A stretch of 64,000 nucleotides of DNA from a virus, in IMG/VR virus record IMGVR_UViG_3300046694_000202, positions 1-64,000 of that record. The stretch is one strand, 5' to 3'. The notes under the pieces were generated by a model that saw only the letters and a list, made by a program, of their open reading frames with translations, made no database searches and was not told where the DNA came from. Below are positions 861 to 45,744 of the stretch, piece after piece (the first letter of the stretch is position 1; every line of letters begins with the position of its first letter). Both the position numbers and the translations under genes were made by a program.

Positions 861-3577
861 GCTGTTGCTTCCTCTTCTTGCTCGACGGGCATCCCGTCAA
901 GGATGTAGTCCAAAATCGCCTTGCGTTCTTCCCGCGTGGCACGTTTGCCGTAGCGGTCCTCGGAGATGCAAGGCAACCCCTTCTGCATTTCCATCAGTTC
1001 AACCTGCCCGTTCGTCGAAGACTTCGGGTTCCACGCCTGCAAGGTCTTGCCGATCGCAAGCGACGAGTCGAGCTTCAGGTTCTTCATCAGGCCCGCGTCG
1101 TCGATCATCACTTCATAGAAGTCGTCGCAGAAGTCGATCACCTGTGAGCGCGGTACGCTGTAGATCAACTCGTCATGCACGAGCAGATAGAAGCGAGCGC
1201 GGTAACCCTTGCTGCGAATCATGTCGTCCATGCGGATCATGGCGCGCTTCGCGAGCGACCCACCGAGGCCCTGCACCTTCGCGTTCACACACTGGTTACC
1301 AGCTCGGCGGTTGATCTTCTTGATCACCAGCTCGCCGAACGCTGCGATGCCGGGGTCGCGGTAAGTGTCGAACTTCATCCGCATGACGTTGACCCACTCG
1401 GTCGTCGCTTCGAACCGGTCGCGGCGATGGTGGTCGGGCAGCTCGACGTAGCCCAGCTCGCGCGCTTCGTTGATCGTGGTGACACGCCACTCTTCAGCGA
1501 CCGAGAACGTAGTCCGGTACTTCTCGACCATCTCCCACATGAAGTCGCTCGACCAGCCCAGCGCTTCGCCAGTCGTGCCCAATGCCCCGCTGTACCAGTA
1601 CCCGAAGTTCGCGGGCTTGCCGATGTCGGTTCGCAGTTGCTTCTTGTTCGGGTTGTTCTCGTACTCTTCGTCGGTCAAGCCCATCAGACCGACCACGGCT
1701 TCCTTGTGCAGATCTTCGTGCGGGCGCTGGCCATAGGCCTTGCGGAACTTCGGATCGTTCGAGTAATCCCCGATGATCACCAGCTCCACCGCTGACCAGT
1801 CGGCCGACACGAGCACGTGCTCTTCGCCTTCCGCGTCGTCGTCGTCGGCCTCGAAGAAGCCACGAACGTACGCGGCCTCGCCGAACTTGCTCAGCTGCTG
1901 GCCGTTCGGGTTCGAGCATGAGCTGCGGCGCGTGGCCAGCATCGAGCTGAGCTGCGGATAGACGCGGCCCGTCTCCGGATCCACGAGGCACAGGTACGGC
2001 GTCAGGTAGAGCTTCACGCGCTGCGCGAGGCCTGCCATCTCCTTGTACGTGCGGAACACCGTGGCGCCCGCCTCGTAGCGCTCGATCTGCTGGCGCGTGG
2101 CGAGGTTGCCGAGCGTGTTCCAGTCCTCGGCCATCTTCACCGCAGGATCGACCTCGCCCGTCTTCTCGTCGATGGGCAGGCCCGCGTCGACGAACTTCTT
2201 GGTCCAGCGGCGCTGCAGCTCCTCGCGGCAGTCACCGTCGCTCTGCGTCTTGCCATCGGCCTGCATGTACGAGCCGCGCAGCAAGTCATAGATGATGGTC
2301 CGCATCGGCATGTAATGAACGAGGTTCACGCCGCTCGATTCCTTCACGCCGCGCTCGATCGACCATGCCGCGGAGACCGGGCTGCGCACCTGATGGCACT
2401 GCTCGAAGTCGTCGCCGCTGTCGGCCGACATCGCCCACTTCTCGATCTGCGCGCGGTACTTCTTATAGCCCGTCGAACCCTTGACCGGGTCCACGTACCA
2501 TTTGTCGTACTTGGCCAGCTTCTCGTGAGGCTCATCATCGAACGGCAGCAGCGCGCGGATCGCAGCCTTCATGGTTCGCAGGCAGCGCGCCTCATTGCCG
2601 CGCTCGATGTCGCGGCGTGCGAGGACGGCCGGCCCGTTGAGCTTGATGCCGTGCTGCCACGCTTCCGACGCCTTCCGAACGAAGGGCATCTCCTGCTGCA
2701 TGAACGTGCCGAAGACCGGAGGGTTGGTCTGCATGATGAACTGCATCAGGCGGTGGAAGAGCTGCACACACCAGTACGCGTCGTCCACGCCGTACTCGAA
2801 CACTTCCTCGCCCGTCAGCATCCCCATGTGGACTTCTTCGCCCAGCGTCTCTTCGAAGGTCGCCATCTGGTAGCCGAACCAGCTCAGCACTGCGCGCTTC
2901 AGGTCGTAGCCGATCTTGATCGATGCCACGTATCCGTTGTAGCTGTGCGCCGAGGTCGACTCCTTGGCCGTGACCTTGTAGACGAGATCTTCCTGATCGG
3001 CGTTGAGCGTCATACCCTGCTCGTAGCCAGCGAACGTGCGTGCCACGATAGGCAGCAGCTTCTCGATGCCACCGAGTCCAGGCTCGCGGAACTTGTCTTT
3101 GAAGTACGTGTCGGGGCTGTACGCGGTCACGCACATCTGCAGCGTGCAGATGACCTTCGTGCCGAGATCGTAGCCGAGCGACTTCTGCATCATGGTCCAC
3201 TCGAAGCCCGCGTTGTGGATCAGCCAGTACGAGTCAGGCTGCTTCGCGTCGAGCAAGCGCTTCGCCCGCGCCCAAGACACGCGGTTCTCCACGTCCTTGT
3301 GCGCAAGGTTCACGTAGTAGCCGTGGTAGTTGCCGTCCGGATAGATCGAGAAGCCCGTCACAGTCGTGCGGTTCGTGTCGAAGATCAGGCGGGTGGACGA
3401 CGACTTCTTGCCTTCGTCATCCACCTTCATGAAACGGTTCAGGCCTGCATGGCGGCGGCTGTCTTCCGTCTCGATGTCGAAGCCGACGAAGCCAGCAGCA
3501 GCCACTTCAGCGATGATCTTGTCGGCGTACTGGTCCCAGTTGCGCGCGTCGATCAGAATTTTTTGGTCGCGGTTCAC
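857..3577 (-). CDS. family A DNA polymerase with 3'-5' exonuclease
   Basis: Replicative DNA polymerase of the Pol I/T7 family, 906 residues. The N-terminal 3'-5' proofreading domain shows Exo I FDIETE (about 33-38) and Exo II IHNAGFEW (about 119-126). The polymerase domain shows motif A SADWSAVELVI (about 593-605), motif B RTDIGKPANFGYWYSG (O-helix, about 647-662) and motif C VHDE (about 800-803) carrying the catalytic carboxylates. There is no 5'-3' nuclease domain; that activity is encoded by the preceding gene. The start overlaps the exonuclease stop by 4 bases, and its stop overlaps the ligase start by 4 bases. The roughly 90-residue stretch between the exonuclease and palm domains (about 365-460) was not assigned to a domain. 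Confidence 0.97.
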   Translation of the reverse strand: MNRDQKILIDARNWDQYADKIIAEVAAAGFVGFDIETEDSRRHAGLNRFMKVDDEGKKSSSTRLIFDTNRTTVTGFSIYPDGNYHGYYVNLAHKDVENRVSWARAKRLLDAKQPDSYWLIHNAGFEWTMMQKSLGYDLGTKVICTLQMCVTAYSPDTYFKDKFREPGLGGIEKLLPIVARTFAGYEQGMTLNADQEDLVYKVTAKESTSAHSYNGYVASIKIGYDLKRAVLSWFGYQMATFEETLGEEVHMGMLTGEEVFEYGVDDAYWCVQLFHRLMQFIMQTNPPVFGTFMQQEMPFVRKASEAWQHGIKLNGPAVLARRDIERGNEARCLRTMKAAIRALLPFDDEPHEKLAKYDKWYVDPVKGSTGYKKYRAQIEKWAMSADSGDDFEQCHQVRSPVSAAWSIERGVKESSGVNLVHYMPMRTIIYDLLRGSYMQADGKTQSDGDCREELQRRWTKKFVDAGLPIDEKTGEVDPAVKMAEDWNTLGNLATRQQIERYEAGATVFRTYKEMAGLAQRVKLYLTPYLCLVDPETGRVYPQLSSMLATRRSSCSNPNGQQLSKFGEAAYVRGFFEADDDDAEGEEHVLVSADWSAVELVIIGDYSNDPKFRKAYGQRPHEDLHKEAVVGLMGLTDEEYENNPNKKQLRTDIGKPANFGYWYSGALGTTGEALGWSSDFMWEMVEKYRTTFSVAEEWRVTTINEARELGYVELPDHHRRDRFEATTEWVNVMRMKFDTYRDPGIAAFGELVIKKINRRAGNQCVNAKVQGLGGSLAKRAMIRMDDMIRSKGYRARFYLLVHDELIYSVPRSQVIDFCDDFYEVMIDDAGLMKNLKLDSSLAIGKTLQAWNPKSSTNGQVELMEMQKGLPCISEDRYGKRATREERKAILDYILDGMPVEQEEEATA

Positions 3578-39372: not shown

Positions 39373-42081
39373 ATGGGTGCGCTGTCCGGCTCCAATTCCG
39401 TAACGAGCAGCGCTACCACTTTCAACCTGTCCTCGCCGGCACAGACGGATTACATCGTCTATCCGGCGACGACAACGCCGACCAGAAAGAGCGGTGCTGG
39501 CTCGACGATCATCGCGGCGGCGGTGCTCGGCGCCGTCTCGTTCGCGACGTTCAACTACGGCAACAACCTGTTCACCTGGACAGGGGGTGCGCCGACCGCG
39601 AGCGGAACGGCGGTCGCGGGCGGGATCTACACGAACCCCACCACCGCTTCGGCGGTGGGTCAGGGTATTCGGCTCGTCCTTCCGGCCGATACGAATTCAC
39701 GCACGGCCGTCATCTACTGGGGCGCGAATAGCTGCGCGCCGCAGCTCGTCGCGACGCTCTCGGACGGCAGCGCCACACCCCTGACGCTCACGCCGACCGC
39801 GACCGGCTCGAACATCGACATCTACTACGCCGCGACCATCACGTTTGCGGCGAACAGCGCGGGCCAGACGCTGACGATCGACATGACGGTGAAGACGCTC
39901 CAGTCGGGCGGCAACATCTTCATCGGCGCGGCGAAGTATCTGACGGCGGTCTCGTCAATCACCGGCTCGGGCGCGGGTGTCCAGAACGCGAACACCAGCT
40001 CGGCGTCGGGCACGGTGGGCATCACCGGCTCGGGCGCCGGCACGCAGGCGAAGGACACCGCAGCGGCCACCGGTACGGTCAGCGTTTCTGGGGCCGCTGC
40101 ATCGACGCAAGCGCCGGATAGCGCGGCGGCAACCGGCGCCGTGGGCATCAGTGGTACGGGCGCAGTCACCGAGGGCAAGGACGTAAGCACCGGCACCGGC
40201 GCGGTCGCCGTCTCGGGGTCTGCAGCGCTCACCGAAGGCAAGGACGTAAGCACGGCCACGGGCGCCGTAGGCGTGTCTGGGGCAGGCTCCGCGACCCAGG
40301 CGAAGGACAACGCAGCGGCAACCGGCGCCGTAGGCGTGGCGGGCCTCGGAAGCGCTTCCCAGGCCAAGAACACGGGCAGCGCGACCGCCACGGTTGGCAT
40401 CAGCGGCTCGGGCGCGGCGACGCAGGCGAAGAACACCAGCTCGGCGACGGCGCAGCTCGGCGTGTCGGGCGCGGCCACGGGCACGCAGCAGAAGGATGTG
40501 AGCGCGGCGAGCGGCGCGACCGGTATCAGCGGCGCGGGCGCGGCCACGCAACAGAAGGACTCGGCGAGCGCGGCCGGCGCGGTTGAGGTTAGCGGCGCGG
40601 GCGCGGCGACCCAGCAGAAGAACACGGCGTCGGGAACCGGCGTCGTGCTCGATGGGATCGTCGGCAGCGGCGCGGGCACACAGGCACCGAACGCGGCAGC
40701 AGCCACTGGCACGGTGAGCGTGTCTGGCTCCGCTGCGGCGACGCAAGCGAAGGACACCAGCTCGGGAACGGGCACGGTCGGTATCACCGGCGCGGGCGCG
40801 GCGACGCAAGCGAAGGACACCAGCTCGGGAACGGGCACGGTCGGTATCACCGGCAGCGCGGCGATCACGCAGCAGCCGAACGTCAGCACCGCGACCGGCG
40901 CGATCGGCAACGTCTCGCAGGGCAGTGCGGCGATCACGCAGCAGCCGAACGCCGCCAGCGGAACAGGCACGGTCGGCATCACCGGCACGGGCGCGGCGAC
41001 GCAGAAACCGGACGCGAGCGCGGCGAGCGCGGCGGTCTCAGTCGACGGCAGCGCAGCGGCGAGCGCCGCGCGCGACGGCGCGAACGGATCTGGCGCGGTC
41101 GAGATCACCGGCACGGGCGCCGCGACTCAGGCGCGCAACGTCATGAATGGCGTCGGCTCGGTCTCGAACAACGAGATCACCGGCACGGGCGCGGGTGTGC
41201 AAGCCCCGAACGTGTCGGCGGCGACGGGCGCCGTGGAAATCACCGGCACCGCTGCGCCCGTGCAGCGCGCCAACGTATCGCACGCAACAGCCTTCGTCGA
41301 TAGCGGCGAAGCACCCCCGGCCCCGAGCCATAACCCTGTTTTGAACAAAGGACGAACCATGAAATGGTTCCAAGCTGGTGAAGACCTCACCTTCGATATC
41401 GAGATCCTGGTCGGCGGGGTGCCCTCGCAGCCGGACCCTGGCACCGTCACGTTCACCGTGCGCGATCAGAACGGGGTGGCTATCCCCGGCCTGAACAACC
41501 AGCCGGTCAACGTGCCGGGAACGACCGCGTCGATCTCTGTGCCCGCCGCCTCGAACATGCTCGCCGATGGCGCGGAGAGCGAGTCGCGCTTCGTGACGCT
41601 CGCCTACATCGCATCGGGTCAAAGCCGGCAGCTGCGCACGTCGTACAGCCTGCACGCGTTCCTGCCGATCGAGGCCTCGTGCGACGCGGTGCGCAGCCTC
41701 GTCGGTGTGTCCTCGGACGAACTGCCGGACGATGACATCGCGCTGGTGCTCAGCTACTTCGACCTCGTGGCCGAAGAGGGCGACACGTTCAAGGACGCCT
41801 TCCTCGCGAAGAACCAGACTCGAGCCGCGGCGAACCGCGCGCTCGCGCTGCGCGCCGCGCTCGAAGCGGTCCCGTCCTTGCAGCTGCGGATCTTCCAGTC
41901 GCGCCAGAGCGAGAACTCCTCGTTCAGCCGCTTCGGCGCCGTCGACTGGGAACGCCTGAAGCTCGACTTGCGCGACCAGCTCGCTGCAGCGCTGAAGTTC
42001 ATTTCCTCGCCCACCACGACCGCCGCGATCCCGACGTACTTCATGGTGTCCGCTCCGACCGATAACGTGACGAACTCATAA
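39373..42081 (+). CDS. repeat-rich head protein fused to a head-tail connector-like domain
   Basis: 902 residues in three parts. (1) About 1-195: beta-rich virion domain (NLFTWTGGAPTASGT, AVIYWGANSCAPQLV). (2) About 195-645: some 21 tandem units of about 21 residues with the form [VI]-T/S-G-x-G/A-A-x-x-Q-x-K/P-D/N-x5-G/A-x-V. Two neighbouring units are 63-base perfect repeats (40741, 40804). (3) About 663-902: a 240-residue domain with FDIEILVGGV and a helical C-terminus resembling a neck/connector protein. An internal ATG at 41359 can produce part 3 alone. The repeats may form an elongated surface appendage (inference). Confidence 0.78.
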   Translation: MGALSGSNSVTSSATTFNLSSPAQTDYIVYPATTTPTRKSGAGSTIIAAAVLGAVSFATFNYGNNLFTWTGGAPTASGTAVAGGIYTNPTTASAVGQGIRLVLPADTNSRTAVIYWGANSCAPQLVATLSDGSATPLTLTPTATGSNIDIYYAATITFAANSAGQTLTIDMTVKTLQSGGNIFIGAAKYLTAVSSITGSGAGVQNANTSSASGTVGITGSGAGTQAKDTAAATGTVSVSGAAASTQAPDSAAATGAVGISGTGAVTEGKDVSTGTGAVAVSGSAALTEGKDVSTATGAVGVSGAGSATQAKDNAAATGAVGVAGLGSASQAKNTGSATATVGISGSGAATQAKNTSSATAQLGVSGAATGTQQKDVSAASGATGISGAGAATQQKDSASAAGAVEVSGAGAATQQKNTASGTGVVLDGIVGSGAGTQAPNAAAATGTVSVSGSAAATQAKDTSSGTGTVGITGAGAATQAKDTSSGTGTVGITGSAAITQQPNVSTATGAIGNVSQGSAAITQQPNAASGTGTVGITGTGAATQKPDASAASAAVSVDGSAAASAARDGANGSGAVEITGTGAATQARNVMNGVGSVSNNEITGTGAGVQAPNVSAATGAVEITGTAAPVQRANVSHATAFVDSGEAPPAPSHNPVLNKGRTMKWFQAGEDLTFDIEILVGGVPSQPDPGTVTFTVRDQNGVAIPGLNNQPVNVPGTTASISVPAASNMLADGAESESRFVTLAYIASGQSRQLRTSYSLHAFLPIEASCDAVRSLVGVSSDELPDDDIALVLSYFDLVAEEGDTFKDAFLAKNQTRAAANRALALRAALEAVPSLQLRIFQSRQSENSSFSRFGAVDWERLKLDLRDQLAAALKFISSPTTTAAIPTYFMVSAPTDNVTNS
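40741..40866 (+). repeat. 63-base perfect direct repeat
   Basis: Two adjacent identical units encoding a 21-residue motif of the array, evidence of recent unit duplication. Confidence 0.9.
41359..42081 (+). CDS. internal in-frame start: connector-like protein alone (240 residues)
   Basis: ATG 41359 lies in frame with AAAGGA 6 bases upstream, an optimal spacing, exactly at the border between repeat array and C-terminal domain (MKWFQAGEDLTFDIEI). The product would be a typical stand-alone neck protein. Its end overlaps the next gene by one base (TAATG). Confidence 0.6.
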   Translation: MKWFQAGEDLTFDIEILVGGVPSQPDPGTVTFTVRDQNGVAIPGLNNQPVNVPGTTASISVPAASNMLADGAESESRFVTLAYIASGQSRQLRTSYSLHAFLPIEASCDAVRSLVGVSSDELPDDDIALVLSYFDLVAEEGDTFKDAFLAKNQTRAAANRALALRAALEAVPSLQLRIFQSRQSENSSFSRFGAVDWERLKLDLRDQLAAALKFISSPTTTAAIPTYFMVSAPTDNVTNS

Positions 42082-43432: not shown

Positions 43433-43890
43433 TCAGCACCAATGTGTATGGCGACCATCTCGCCAGCTTGATGAAGTTCTGCAAGGACTTCGCCACTCAA
43501 CTCAATGTCGTCGACGAAGATCCGTTCGAGCCGGTGCTTCTCGATGCGTACGACGACTATGAGCAGCTGCCGAAGGGGTCGTTGATTGGAGTCGCGGGCT
43601 ACGCGATCGACATCGACGAGCACATCGTGTCGGTGAAGGTGATGATCGGGATCGGCACGGAGAATGACACCAACACGTTCCGCTTGACTGCGGCGATGAA
43701 CAAGCTCGTTCAGCGGCTCTTGCCGACGAAACGTCTTGATGTGGTGGATTGCGAGACGGGGGCGCTGCTGGGGGTGATGACTATCGAGAACGGCGTTCGA
43801 GTGATGCCGGCGAGTAATGCTGGAGGAAGGACCATGAAGTATGTCGCTTTCATGGCCCAATCCGGTGTCACTGTGGATCTTGGTTCTTAA
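43429..43890 (+). CDS. probable tail terminator/completion protein
   Basis: 153 residues starting at an ATGA overlap. Pattern helix, then GSLIGVAGYAIDIDEHIVSV and MNKLVQRLLPTK, of the size and position of proteins that cap the tail tube just before the major tail gene. Its 3' end overlaps the antisense Arc-like gene. Confidence 0.66.
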   Translation: MISTNVYGDHLASLMKFCKDFATQLNVVDEDPFEPVLLDAYDDYEQLPKGSLIGVAGYAIDIDEHIVSVKVMIGIGTENDTNTFRLTAAMNKLVQRLLPTKRLDVVDCETGALLGVMTIENGVRVMPASNAGGRTMKYVAFMAQSGVTVDLGS

Positions 43891-44062
43891 GGCTCTCGAT
43901 CAACCGCAGATCGCTCGCCGTTCCGGCGTCGATGCCTGCTTCAATCAGCAAGATCAGCTCGGCGTTCTTTGTGCGCCGGTTGATCTTCGCCCGATTCACT
44001 ACTTGCTCGTGGACCTCGCGCGGCAAGCGGAGGGTGGATGCGATGAGATCTTCTAATTCCAT
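43868..44062 (-). CDS. Arc-like ribbon-helix-helix repressor, leftward inside the late region
   Basis: 64 residues. The N-terminal strand TLRLPREVHEQVVNRAKI followed by two helices (NRRTKNAELILLIEAGIDAG) is the Arc/MetJ ribbon-helix-helix fold that binds DNA as dimers. AGGAG lies 9 bases upstream of ATG 44062. It is the only leftward gene among the late genes and overlaps the 3' end of the tail-completion gene by 23 bases. Inverted repeats in its leader (44066-44085, 44091-44109) are likely operators. Expected to repress its own and the adjacent rightward promoter (inference). Confidence 0.85.
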   Translation of the reverse strand: MELEDLIASTLRLPREVHEQVVNRAKINRRTKNAELILLIEAGIDAGTASDLRLIESLKNQDPQ

Positions 44063-44065
44063 TTG

Positions 44066-44085
44066 TTGGTTCTCCTATCAACCAA
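44066..44085. promoter_or_regulatory. inverted repeat enclosing the ribosome site of the Arc-like gene
   Basis: TTGGTT/AACCAA with the CTCCTATC (AGGAG complement) in the loop. Could sequester the ribosome site in RNA or serve as an operator. Confidence 0.55.
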
Positions 44086-44090
44086 TAAAA

Positions 44091-44123
44091 ACCTTTGATT
44101 CTCAAAGGTAGCACAGCTACGAT
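44091..44123 (+). promoter_or_regulatory. promoter of the tail tube gene with overlapping operator
   Basis: ACCTTTGA-TTC-TCAAAGGT dyad (44091-44109) covers a TTTGAT -35-like box (44094-44099). 18 bases later TACGAT (44118-44123) is a -10-like box. It precedes the tail tube start at 44159. Confidence 0.55.
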
Positions 44124-44158: not shown

Positions 44159-44950
44159 ATGGCTGGCGAAGCAAAGTCAAATAAGTTCATGCTGGGCACA
44201 GCCACCGTGATGGTGGGCGCCCAGTCTGACCTGTTCAACCTGAACCCCACCGACCACTCGATCGGTCTCGTGAAGAACTTCACGATCAGCGGCCAACCGT
44301 CGTACACCGAACTCACGCAAGGCGTGAAGAACTCGGTCGTGTACTCAGTCATGACGGGCAACCCCGTGACCGCGACGATGGAAGTCTACGAGCACACGGC
44401 GAAGAACTTGGCCTACGGCCTCGGTCTCGACGGCTCGGCGATGGCTCCGACCACGGTCGCCACCACGACCAACGCTGACGTGGCCGCGAACGTCGCCGGC
44501 ACGAAGCTCATCCCGTGCGCGGCCGTCACCGGCTTCCTGGTCGGCGACTGGATTCAGGCTCTGCCGGTCGGCCCGACCGACAAGGTGCTGGTCGCGAAGA
44601 TCAAGTCGATCGACGCAACCGCCAAGACGATCACGGTCCAAGACGACCACGGCTTCTCGTATGCCCTCGCCAGCGGCTCGCTGGTCAAGAAGGTGAACGT
44701 GGTTGGTATCGGTTCGAAGTCGGATCAGCCGTTCCTCTCGGCCAAGATCGTCGGCAACCTCGCGGACGGTACGCCGGTCGCGCTGTTGATCCCGAAGATC
44801 CGCGTCACGGGCGGCTTCACGCTGGCGTTCAAGTCGGACTCGTTCGGCAACCTGCCCTACAAGTTCCAGCCGTACGACCTGACCCAAGCGGATCCGTTCT
44901 ACGACACCTTCCTGCCGTACGGTCAGGCGATGTTGGCATCGGCCAACTAA
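44159..44950 (+). CDS. major tail tube protein
   Basis: 263 residues. Forms the stacked rings of the tail tube. The pattern NFTISGQPSYTELTQG, SVVYSVMTGNPVTATMEVYE and the C-terminal FSDxFG-like segment (FKSDSFGNLPYKFQPYDLTQ) is typical of siphophage tube proteins with a beta-barrel core. A DNA-binding-size insert with VGDWIQALPVG lies in the middle (about 115-150). Followed by a strong terminator. Confidence 0.9.
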   Translation: MAGEAKSNKFMLGTATVMVGAQSDLFNLNPTDHSIGLVKNFTISGQPSYTELTQGVKNSVVYSVMTGNPVTATMEVYEHTAKNLAYGLGLDGSAMAPTTVATTTNADVAANVAGTKLIPCAAVTGFLVGDWIQALPVGPTDKVLVAKIKSIDATAKTITVQDDHGFSYALASGSLVKKVNVVGIGSKSDQPFLSAKIVGNLADGTPVALLIPKIRVTGGFTLAFKSDSFGNLPYKFQPYDLTQADPFYDTFLPYGQAMLASAN

Positions 44951-44988
44951 GGTTCTTAGCGGTACGAAAAAGATCCTTGATGCACCAA

Positions 44989-45018
44989 GCCTCCAGACTC
45001 ATAATCTGGAGGCTTTTT
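44989..45018 (+). terminator. Rho-independent terminator after the tail tube gene
   Basis: Perfect GCCTCCAGA/TCTGGAGGC stem with a 7-base loop followed by TTTTT. Confidence 0.95.
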
Positions 45019-45034
45019 CATTCCTGGATCCACC

Positions 45035-45457
45035 ATGACCACCACCCAAAAATCCGCGCCGGCGCCCCGCCTCAAAGTCACCGTCAATGACGTGCAGCGC
45101 GAGCTGTTCATGTCGTTCGGCTTGCTCAACGAGCTTTGCCGCGGCGTCGGCAGCGTCCAGTCGGCGATTCAAATCCCGACCGATTCCGAGCTGCGCGACT
45201 ACACGCTGCTGGCTACCCTGTCCGAGCGCAACGAGAACGGTGAAGTCGACACGCCGATCAACCTGCGTCTGATCGACATGTCGCTCGAAGATGCCGAGAA
45301 CCTGCTGTCGTGGGCCTCCGATCACTGCGTCGATTTTTTTCTGCGGACGATGGAGAGAGTCGTCAAGACGCAGGAGAAGAACCTGGATCGGTTCGCAAGC
45401 CTGAAAGCAAAAAGCCCGGAAAGCTCACAGCCTTCGTCGACTGGTTCCGCGACCTGA
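45035..45457 (+). CDS. tail assembly chaperone, short form (gpG-like)
   Basis: 140 residues. Lambda gpG-like chaperone that coats the tape measure protein before tube assembly. N-terminus disordered, then a helical domain (FMSFGLLNELCRGVGSVQ; DMSLEDAENLLSWASDHC). The zero-frame stop comes at 45457, while a -1 frame continues to 45744; see the fusion entry. Confidence 0.85.
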   Translation: MTTTQKSAPAPRLKVTVNDVQRELFMSFGLLNELCRGVGSVQSAIQIPTDSELRDYTLLATLSERNENGEVDTPINLRLIDMSLEDAENLLSWASDHCVDFFLRTMERVVKTQEKNLDRFASLKAKSPESSQPSSTGSAT

Positions 45458-45744
45458 GCTTCACAGACGGGGTGTGCTGGGCATTCGACGTGGTGCCCTC
45501 CGAGCTGCCCCGAATTCTCTGGAAGTACACCCGAGAGGACATTAAAATTCGCACACGCTTGAAGCTTGGCGAGGGTCAAGCTCATCATGTGCAGCAATTC
45601 CAGACGATCGCCACCCTTCTCTCCGGATTCTTAGGTGGGGAAACTTCAGAATCAAGTGGCTCAGATAGTGAGTCGTCCTCTGAAAAGCCTAAGAACTTCG
45701 AGGATGCGCAACGTCAACTAGCAGCAGTCTTCGGGAAATCGTAG
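45035..45744 (+). CDS. tail assembly chaperone, -1 frameshift fusion (gpGT-like)
   Basis: Near codon 126 the sequence GCAAAAAGC (45407-45415) allows a -1 slip on five A, after which reading continues in the second frame (KPGKLTAFVDWFRDLSFTDG) to 45744, giving about 236 residues. The overlap arrangement, size and location just before the tape measure gene match the lambda G/GT pair. The slip is not a canonical XXXYYYZ heptamer, so the exact position is an inference. Confidence 0.82.

What the first reader, a model, noticed from the sequence alone, without database searches (positions are those of the whole stretch)
43868..44123. Arc-like repressor transcribed against the late operon, with an operator over the tail tube promoter
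A ribbon-helix-helix gene lies leftward in the short gap before the major tail gene. In its leader are two inverted repeats: one encloses its ribosome site, the other (ACCTTTGA-TTC-TCAAAGGT) covers a -35-like box of a rightward promoter. A local late-gene switch at the tail tube gene is rare; lysogeny immunity elsewhere is the usual role of Arc-type proteins.
Basis: partly seen in the sequence, partly recalled or inferred. Interest (0 to 1): 0.75.

Follow-up and report, generated by a model that had tools for sequence, protein, structure and literature searches.

The report
Conserved local repressor of phage tail-tube gene
A tiny DNA-binding protein gene, read against the grain of a phage's late genes, sits right in front of the gene for the tail tube and very probably switches that one gene (and perhaps the next tail operon) off; the same arrangement recurs across a whole family of about 80-kb tailed phages, most of them probably temperate, so it looks like an overlooked, dedicated control point.

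Summary
The features are real. Window 43868-44062(-) encodes a 64-aa Arc-type ribbon-helix-helix (RHH) protein. It lies antisense before the tail-tube gene (44159-44950), whose model matches the solved Mystique tail tube. Relatives change the interpretation. An antisense RHH gene sits at this exact spot in 53 of 71 distinct relatives; 10 more carry a probable two-domain replacement. It is under purifying selection (dN/dS 0.05-0.37). The perfect palindrome 44091-44109 is not the conserved operator: only one close relative keeps it. What is conserved is a tandem ACC-N7-ACC half-site (44081-44093) abutting the -35 of a rightward promoter (TTGATT-N17-TACGAT). It is present in 21 of 22 loci whose RHH contact triad is Ala-Thr/Ser-Arg and in 1 of 32 others. 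Within whole genomes the longer motif is essentially unique. The tube gene ends in its own terminator (84 of 90 loci). A second, related half-site cluster lies just after the tube stop, around a promoter whose -10 sits in that terminator's loop. Best reading: a dedicated, self-limiting local repressor of the tube unit and probably of the next tail operon. Binding, polarity and timing are unproven; activation is the main rival. Closest precedent: P22 immI.

The parts
43868..44062 (-). RHH (Arc-type) regulator gene, 64 aa; beta-strand ASTLRLP, contact residues A8, T10, R12
   Evidence: PF03869 E=2.8e-6; model pLDDT 90.5, strand + two helices; AmrZ, Mnt, Arc hits; dN/dS 0.20 against L008
43429..43890 (+). 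upstream late gene (tail-completion position); its 3' end overlaps the RHH gene's 3' end by 23 nt, so late transcription runs antisense through the RHH gene
   Evidence: overlap in 64 of 66 loci, median 32 nt
44080..44083 (+). half-site AACC (first of tandem pair, operator O1)
44090..44093 (+). half-site AACC (second of tandem pair, 10-bp step, abuts the -35)
44095..44100 (+). -35 (TTGATT) of the putative rightward tube promoter
44118..44123 (+). -10 (TACGAT; TANNAT in all near relatives) of the putative tube promoter, N17 spacing
44105..44113 (-). candidate extended -10 (TGCTACCTT) for the leftward RHH promoter; GGTAnCA kept in the near clade. No good -35: tentative
   Evidence: clear leftward promoters are seen in other clades (L003, L050, L067, L070, L029)
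44159..44950 (+). tail tube (major tail) protein gene
   Evidence: phrog_28493; best fold match 9n71, Mystique tail tube, E=1.3e-22, TM 0.80
44951..44963 (+). GGT-N7-GGT, part of the second operator-like cluster (O2) directly after the tube stop
44974..44986 (+). TCC-N7-ACC (first half-site degenerate) flanking the -35 TTGATG, part of O2
44977..44982 (+). -35 (TTGATG) of a putative promoter P2 for the tape-measure chaperone operon
45000..45005 (+). -10 (CATAAT) of P2, in the loop of the tube terminator hairpin
44987..45015 (+). intrinsic terminator of the tube gene (11-bp stem, -18.3 kcal/mol, z -5.8)
45035..45457 (+). tail tape-measure chaperone gene, first gene of the next tail operon
   Evidence: phrog_37198

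Best explanation
The gene encodes a dedicated RHH repressor of the adjacent tail-tube transcription unit. Dimers bind ACC/GGT half-sites (O1) stepped by about one helical turn, next to and over the -35 of the tube promoter, and block RNA polymerase. The same sites lie at the start of the RHH gene's own leftward transcript, so the protein also limits itself. A second half-site cluster (O2) after the tube gene flanks the -35 of a promoter for the tape-measure chaperone operon, so the regulon is probably two tail promoters bracketing the tube gene. When the late operon upstream is switched on, transcription runs antisense through the RHH gene and across its promoter. RHH synthesis then stops and the tube promoter is released, giving a late, high dose of tube protein from a stand-alone promoter-gene-terminator unit. 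Shown by sequence: the protein family, its conserved position and orientation, purifying selection, conserved half-sites and promoter elements, uniqueness in the genome, the terminator. Inferred: binding, the sign of regulation, autoregulation, and release by antisense transcription.
For: RHH at the same antisense position in 53 of 71 distinct relatives. dN/dS 0.05-0.37. Arc/Mnt/AmrZ relatedness. ACC-N7-ACC in 21 of 22 loci with an A-T/S-R triad against 1.0 expected from shuffles, and in 1 of 32 with other triads. ACC-N7-ACCTTTG once per genome at the tube promoter in 13 of 14 such genomes, and one Arc-family gene per genome. Conserved TTG-N17-TANNAT promoter. Tube terminator in 84 of 90 loci against 3 of 450 shuffles. 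O2 in 16 of 21 loci against 0.8 expected, and in 2 of 48 other loci. Half-sites abut the -35 at O1 and flank it at O2, a blocking geometry. Convergent overlap with the upstream late gene in 64 of 66 loci. AmrZ reads short GGC half-sites across an A/T-rich linker with the equivalent beta-strand residues (PMC3325190).
Against: No binding, transcript or mutant data. Related loci are not independent: with only 3 usable independent pairs the triad-motif association cannot be tested on the tree. The tube promoter is far from consensus (8/12), which also fits an activated promoter, and the O1 pair is centred near -43, where class II activators sit. The RHH gene's own promoter is not clear in the window. 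RHH has been lost several times, also in integrase- or ParA-bearing relatives, so it is not essential.
Confidence: 0.64

Rival explanations
1. The RHH protein is mainly an activator of the weak tube promoter, bound around -43 like a class II activator, while repressing its own leftward promoter. It would be a local late-gene activator.
For: The O1 tandem pair is centred near -43 relative to the presumed start. The promoter hexamers are weak (8/12; 7/12 in JWF). Known RHH proteins can do both (AmrZ, NikR: PMC3325190).
Against: Most RHH regulators repress (PMC3325190). The second half-site abuts the -35 at O1, and the O2 half-sites flank the -35 hexamer. Phages without the RHH gene still carry a tube gene with possible promoters of its own.
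Confidence: 0.16
2. The RHH is a moron or leftover of a P22-like immunity module that only controls itself; the conserved sites are its own autoregulatory operator and overlap the tube promoter by location alone.
For: P22 immI sits inside the late operon, and phage L keeps only an mnt-like gene there (PMC8022706). RHH-Ant modules lie among tail genes in Midgardsormr38 and PS-1.
Against: No ant or other partner gene. One position before one homologous gene across a deep clade. Purifying selection. A second half-site cluster downstream of the tube gene where no RHH promoter is needed.
Confidence: 0.12
3. The RHH acts mainly elsewhere (lysogeny immunity, plasmid partition or an antitoxin role), and its position is incidental.
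For: RHH folds serve as antitoxins and partition proteins; the window genome carries a ParA.
Against: No toxin ORF beside it. RHH occurs with or without ParA and with or without integrase. The motif is unique to the tube promoter in nearly all genomes tested. The position is fixed for very divergent RHH sequences.
Confidence: 0.06
4. The inverted repeat is an intrinsic terminator or attenuator on the minus strand, not an operator.
For: The scanner lists it and the window sequence folds at -8 kcal/mol.
Against: The hairpin is lost in relatives while ACC/GGT half-sites and the -35 stay.
Confidence: 0.02

Closest known systems
P22 immI (mnt-arc-ant)
   Different: P22 Mnt/Arc control the antirepressor gene ant. 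Here there is no ant, and the neighbouring controlled gene is a structural tail gene.
Arc / Mnt repressors (Pfam PF03869)
   Same: Same fold family and beta-strand reading head.
   Different: Half-sites are ACC at a 10-bp tandem step; the target is a tail-tube promoter.
AmrZ (Pseudomonas), RHH bound to two 3-bp half-sites over an A/T-rich linker
   Same: Best sequence match among solved structures; short GGC half-sites and an A/T linker (PMC3325190).
   Different: AmrZ is a host regulator of many genes and its repressor site has two GGC half-sites over a 5-bp linker; here half-sites are ACC in tandem with an A/T-rich 7-bp linker.
Achromobacter phage JWF gp17 'Arc-like DNA binding domain protein'
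   Same: The orthologue in the same position, already annotated as Arc-like.
   Different: I found no regulatory role, operator or family-wide conservation reported for it in the papers that could be searched; the original JWF genome paper was not available.

Membership tests
Arc-type ribbon-helix-helix regulators (PF03869) | profile match above the curated cut-off | tested here: met
   27.5 vs 20.4 bits, E=2.8e-6
Arc-type ribbon-helix-helix regulators (PF03869) | beta-alpha-alpha fold with dimer-forming strand | tested here: met
   AlphaFold model pLDDT 90.5 with strands 6-8/12-14, helices 15-27 and 32-60. Foldseek ranks Arc and AmrZ first, but with weak E-values. Dimer not modelled.
Arc-type ribbon-helix-helix regulators (PF03869) | binds specific repeated half-sites in its target promoter | tested here: inconclusive
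   Half-sites conserved and tied to the contact triad, but no binding data and no tree-corrected test.
P22 immI secondary immunity module | RHH repressor gene(s) embedded in the late operon with independent expression | tested here: inconclusive
   Position met; own promoter clear in other clades only.
P22 immI secondary immunity module | linked antirepressor gene ant | tested here: not met
   No such gene between the upstream tail gene and the tube gene; the gap holds only the RHH ORF.
Type II toxin-antitoxin antitoxin (RHH type) | adjacent co-oriented toxin gene | tested here: not met
   No minus-strand partner ORF in the gap; it is flanked by plus-strand tail genes.
Plasmid partition RHH centromere-binding protein | linked to and co-occurring with a ParA gene | tested here: not met
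   ParA lies 24 kb away and is absent from most relatives with the RHH gene.

The most novel reading that the evidence does not exclude
One small RHH protein controls two tail promoters that bracket the tube gene, the second built into the loop of the tube gene's own terminator hairpin, so that one 30-bp element ends the tube message and starts the tape-measure operon. This tail-specific circuit, released by antisense late transcription, is an old and widespread control layer in ~80-kb siphophages, independent of the lysogeny repressor.
Probability: 0.33. Interest if true: 0.8.

Novelty: new variant of a known kind. Interest (0 to 1): 0.63.

Why it matters
Late structural genes of temperate phages are usually thought to be governed by one late promoter and an activator or antiterminator. 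A conserved, dedicated repressor for the tail-tube unit would be a separate control layer for the tail protein needed in high copy, and it explains an 'Arc-like' annotation left without a function. It offers a compact natural system (64-aa protein, clade-specific half-sites with matching contact residues) for studying how RHH specificity evolves. A possible reason to keep the tube gene tightly off, from general knowledge and untested here: tube proteins can polymerise on their own, and the bacterial defence protein DSR2 recognises a phage tail tube protein.

Tried and rejected
The perfect palindrome as operator: kept only in the window and L008. Leftward terminator or attenuator: hairpin not conserved. 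Known RNA element: only one sub-threshold hit outside the region. Regulon by exact motif in the rest of the genome: no second exact copy; looser patterns have too little information. Tree-corrected test of the contact triad-operator link: too few independent pairs. A shared operator upstream and downstream of the tube gene by simple best-match scoring: not significant in general, including the other RHH classes; only the half-site spacing test supports O2. Literature searches for a repressor or separate promoter of a tail tube gene found no described case.

Full report
OBSERVATION. The window is 64 kb of an 83,429-base virus record. The minus-strand ORF 43868-44062 encodes 64 aa that match Pfam Arc (PF03869) above the curated cut-off. 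A profile of the family finds AmrZ, Mnt and Arc among solved structures. The AlphaFold model is a confident strand-helix-helix (pLDDT 90.5), with Arc and AmrZ as best, though weak, Foldseek hits.

THE NEIGHBOUR IS THE TAIL TUBE. 44159-44950 belongs to phrog_28493. Its model matches the cryo-EM tail tube of Acinetobacter phage Mystique best (9n71, E=1.3e-22, TM 0.80); Mystique carries a homologue. It is followed by the tape-measure chaperone (phrog_37198) and a 2092-aa tape-measure-like protein.

THE ARRANGEMENT IS A FAMILY TRAIT. Relatives of the tube gene were fetched from phages, plasmids, IMG/VR and bacterial genomes. An RHH ORF, antisense and directly upstream of the tube gene, was found in most of them, including Achromobacter phages JWF and 2-1, Xylophilus phage Lumi and Caulobacter phage Seuss (unannotated in the last two), Burkholderia paludis, and the 85.7-kb Methylobacterium plasmid pMaq22A_3p. 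On a tree of 71 distinct tube proteins, 53 loci carry it. Ten carry a longer protein in the same place and orientation that I read from its sequence as two RHH domains in tandem; Pfam finds nothing in the two tested. Eight have a 72-110 nt gap with no such gene. The label changes few times on the tree, which suggests an old trait with several losses, though an unrooted tree cannot tell gain from loss. Close pairs give dN/dS 0.05-0.37, so the protein is under purifying selection. The RHH stop overlaps the stop of the upstream late gene in 64 of 66 loci, leaving no room for a terminator between them.

WHAT IS CONSERVED IN THE LEADER. The perfect palindrome 44091-44109 survives only in L008. What survives is ACC-N7-ACC (44081-44093), followed at once by TTG[AC]TT-N17-TA[CG][CG]AT, a rightward sigma70-like promoter ending 32-35 nt before the tube start. 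ACC-N7-ACC lies within 130 nt of the tube start in 21 of 22 loci whose RHH strand carries the contact triad Ala-Thr/Ser-Arg (1.0 expected from shuffles) and in 1 of 32 loci with other triads (Fisher p 9e-13). That p-value ignores shared ancestry, and the tree offers too few independent contrasts for a corrected test. The longer motif ACC-N7-ACCTTTG occurs exactly once, at the tube promoter, in 13 of 14 whole genomes of this class; Lumi has the tandem AACC without the CTTTG tail. Among 8 other genomes, two single matches lie elsewhere. Each of the 14 also has a single Arc-family gene. Phages lacking RHH lack the motif.

PROMOTERS. Best sigma70-like sites beat shuffles at p<=0.05 in 12 of 53 (rightward) and 13 of 53 (leftward) RHH loci, against about 2.7 expected. 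The clearest are Lumi (TTGAGA-17-TAGAAT rightward, TTGCCT-17-TATCAT leftward, interleaved), L038 and L050. In the window itself the rightward promoter is weak by consensus, and the leftward one is only a candidate extended -10 (TGCTACCTT, 44113-44105).

THE TUBE GENE IS ITS OWN UNIT, WITH A SECOND SITE BEHIND IT. A strong terminator follows the tube gene in 84 of 90 loci (3 of 450 shuffles); the window hairpin folds at -18.3 kcal/mol. Between stop and hairpin lies a second half-site cluster (GGT-N7-GGT 44951-44963; TCC-N7-ACC 44974-44986). Tandem ACC or GGT at this step occurs there in 16 of 21 loci of the A-T/S-R class (0.8 expected) and in 2 of 48 others (1.0 expected). The sites flank TTGATG, which is followed at N17 by CATAAT in the hairpin loop. 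In 54 loci outside the two-domain group, TTG starts 24 nt before the loop centre in 26 and 23 nt before it in 6, with 0-3 at any other offset. That points to a promoter for the tape-measure operon embedded in the tube terminator. It was not tested experimentally, and a plain best-match comparison of the two sites was not significant.

LIFESTYLE. The window genome has a ParA (VirC1/CbiA type) and a RepL-like winged-helix protein and no tyrosine integrase. Relatives have either ParA or an integrase, or neither; one with an integrase also shows a weak, below-cut-off ParA hit. Most are therefore probably temperate, as phage-plasmids or integrated prophages. JWF has been called temperate (PMC9959647), while the Acinetobacter relatives lacking RHH are described as strictly lytic (PMC12893723). 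RHH presence does not follow lifestyle strictly: W05, G014 and G026 (integrase) and G012 (ParA) lack it.

MECHANISM. The blocking geometry at both promoters, the usual behaviour of RHH proteins, and the antisense placement favour a self-limiting local repressor that is released when late transcription runs through its gene. Activation from around -43 remains possible. The nearest precedent is P22 immI, a set of RHH genes inside the late operon (PMC8022706); it differs in its target and in having ant. I found no described case of a dedicated RHH repressor of a tail-tube gene in the open papers available.

Noticed in passing
window 44951-45015: Probable promoter (TTGATG-N17-CATAAT) whose -10 lies in the loop of the tube gene's terminator hairpin; the -35 keeps the same distance to the loop in 32 of 54 relatives. 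A combined terminator-promoter would be worth its own study.
   Followed up: partly
L060, L063, L068, L069, L079, L088, L019, about 2600-2950 (-): A longer protein, by eye two RHH domains in tandem, replaces the small RHH gene at the same antisense position; its leader keeps an AGGTAT...AACCT pair.
   Followed up: partly
L003 (Xylophilus phage Lumi) 2647-2910 (-); L004 (Caulobacter phage Seuss) 2499-2882 (-): RHH genes missing from the deposited annotations.
   Followed up: yes
positions 68366-70463 of the 83,429-base record (in L023): ParA and RepL-like genes and no tyrosine integrase: probable phage-plasmid. In the family ParA and integrase look mutually exclusive, apart from one weak ParA hit.
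   Followed up: partly
window 39373-42081 (+): 902-aa protein between the head genes and the neck genes, made largely of degenerate repeats of about 19 aa (TGxVGITGxGAxTQxKD); function unknown.
   Followed up: no
window 45035-45744 (+): Two overlapping frames after the tube gene look like the usual frameshifted tape-measure chaperone pair; slippage is annotated in Seuss.
   Followed up: no
L021 and L022: In Erwinia phage Midgardsormr38 and Pseudomonas phage PS-1, Arc-type genes with antirepressor genes sit among tail genes before the tape measure.
   Followed up: no
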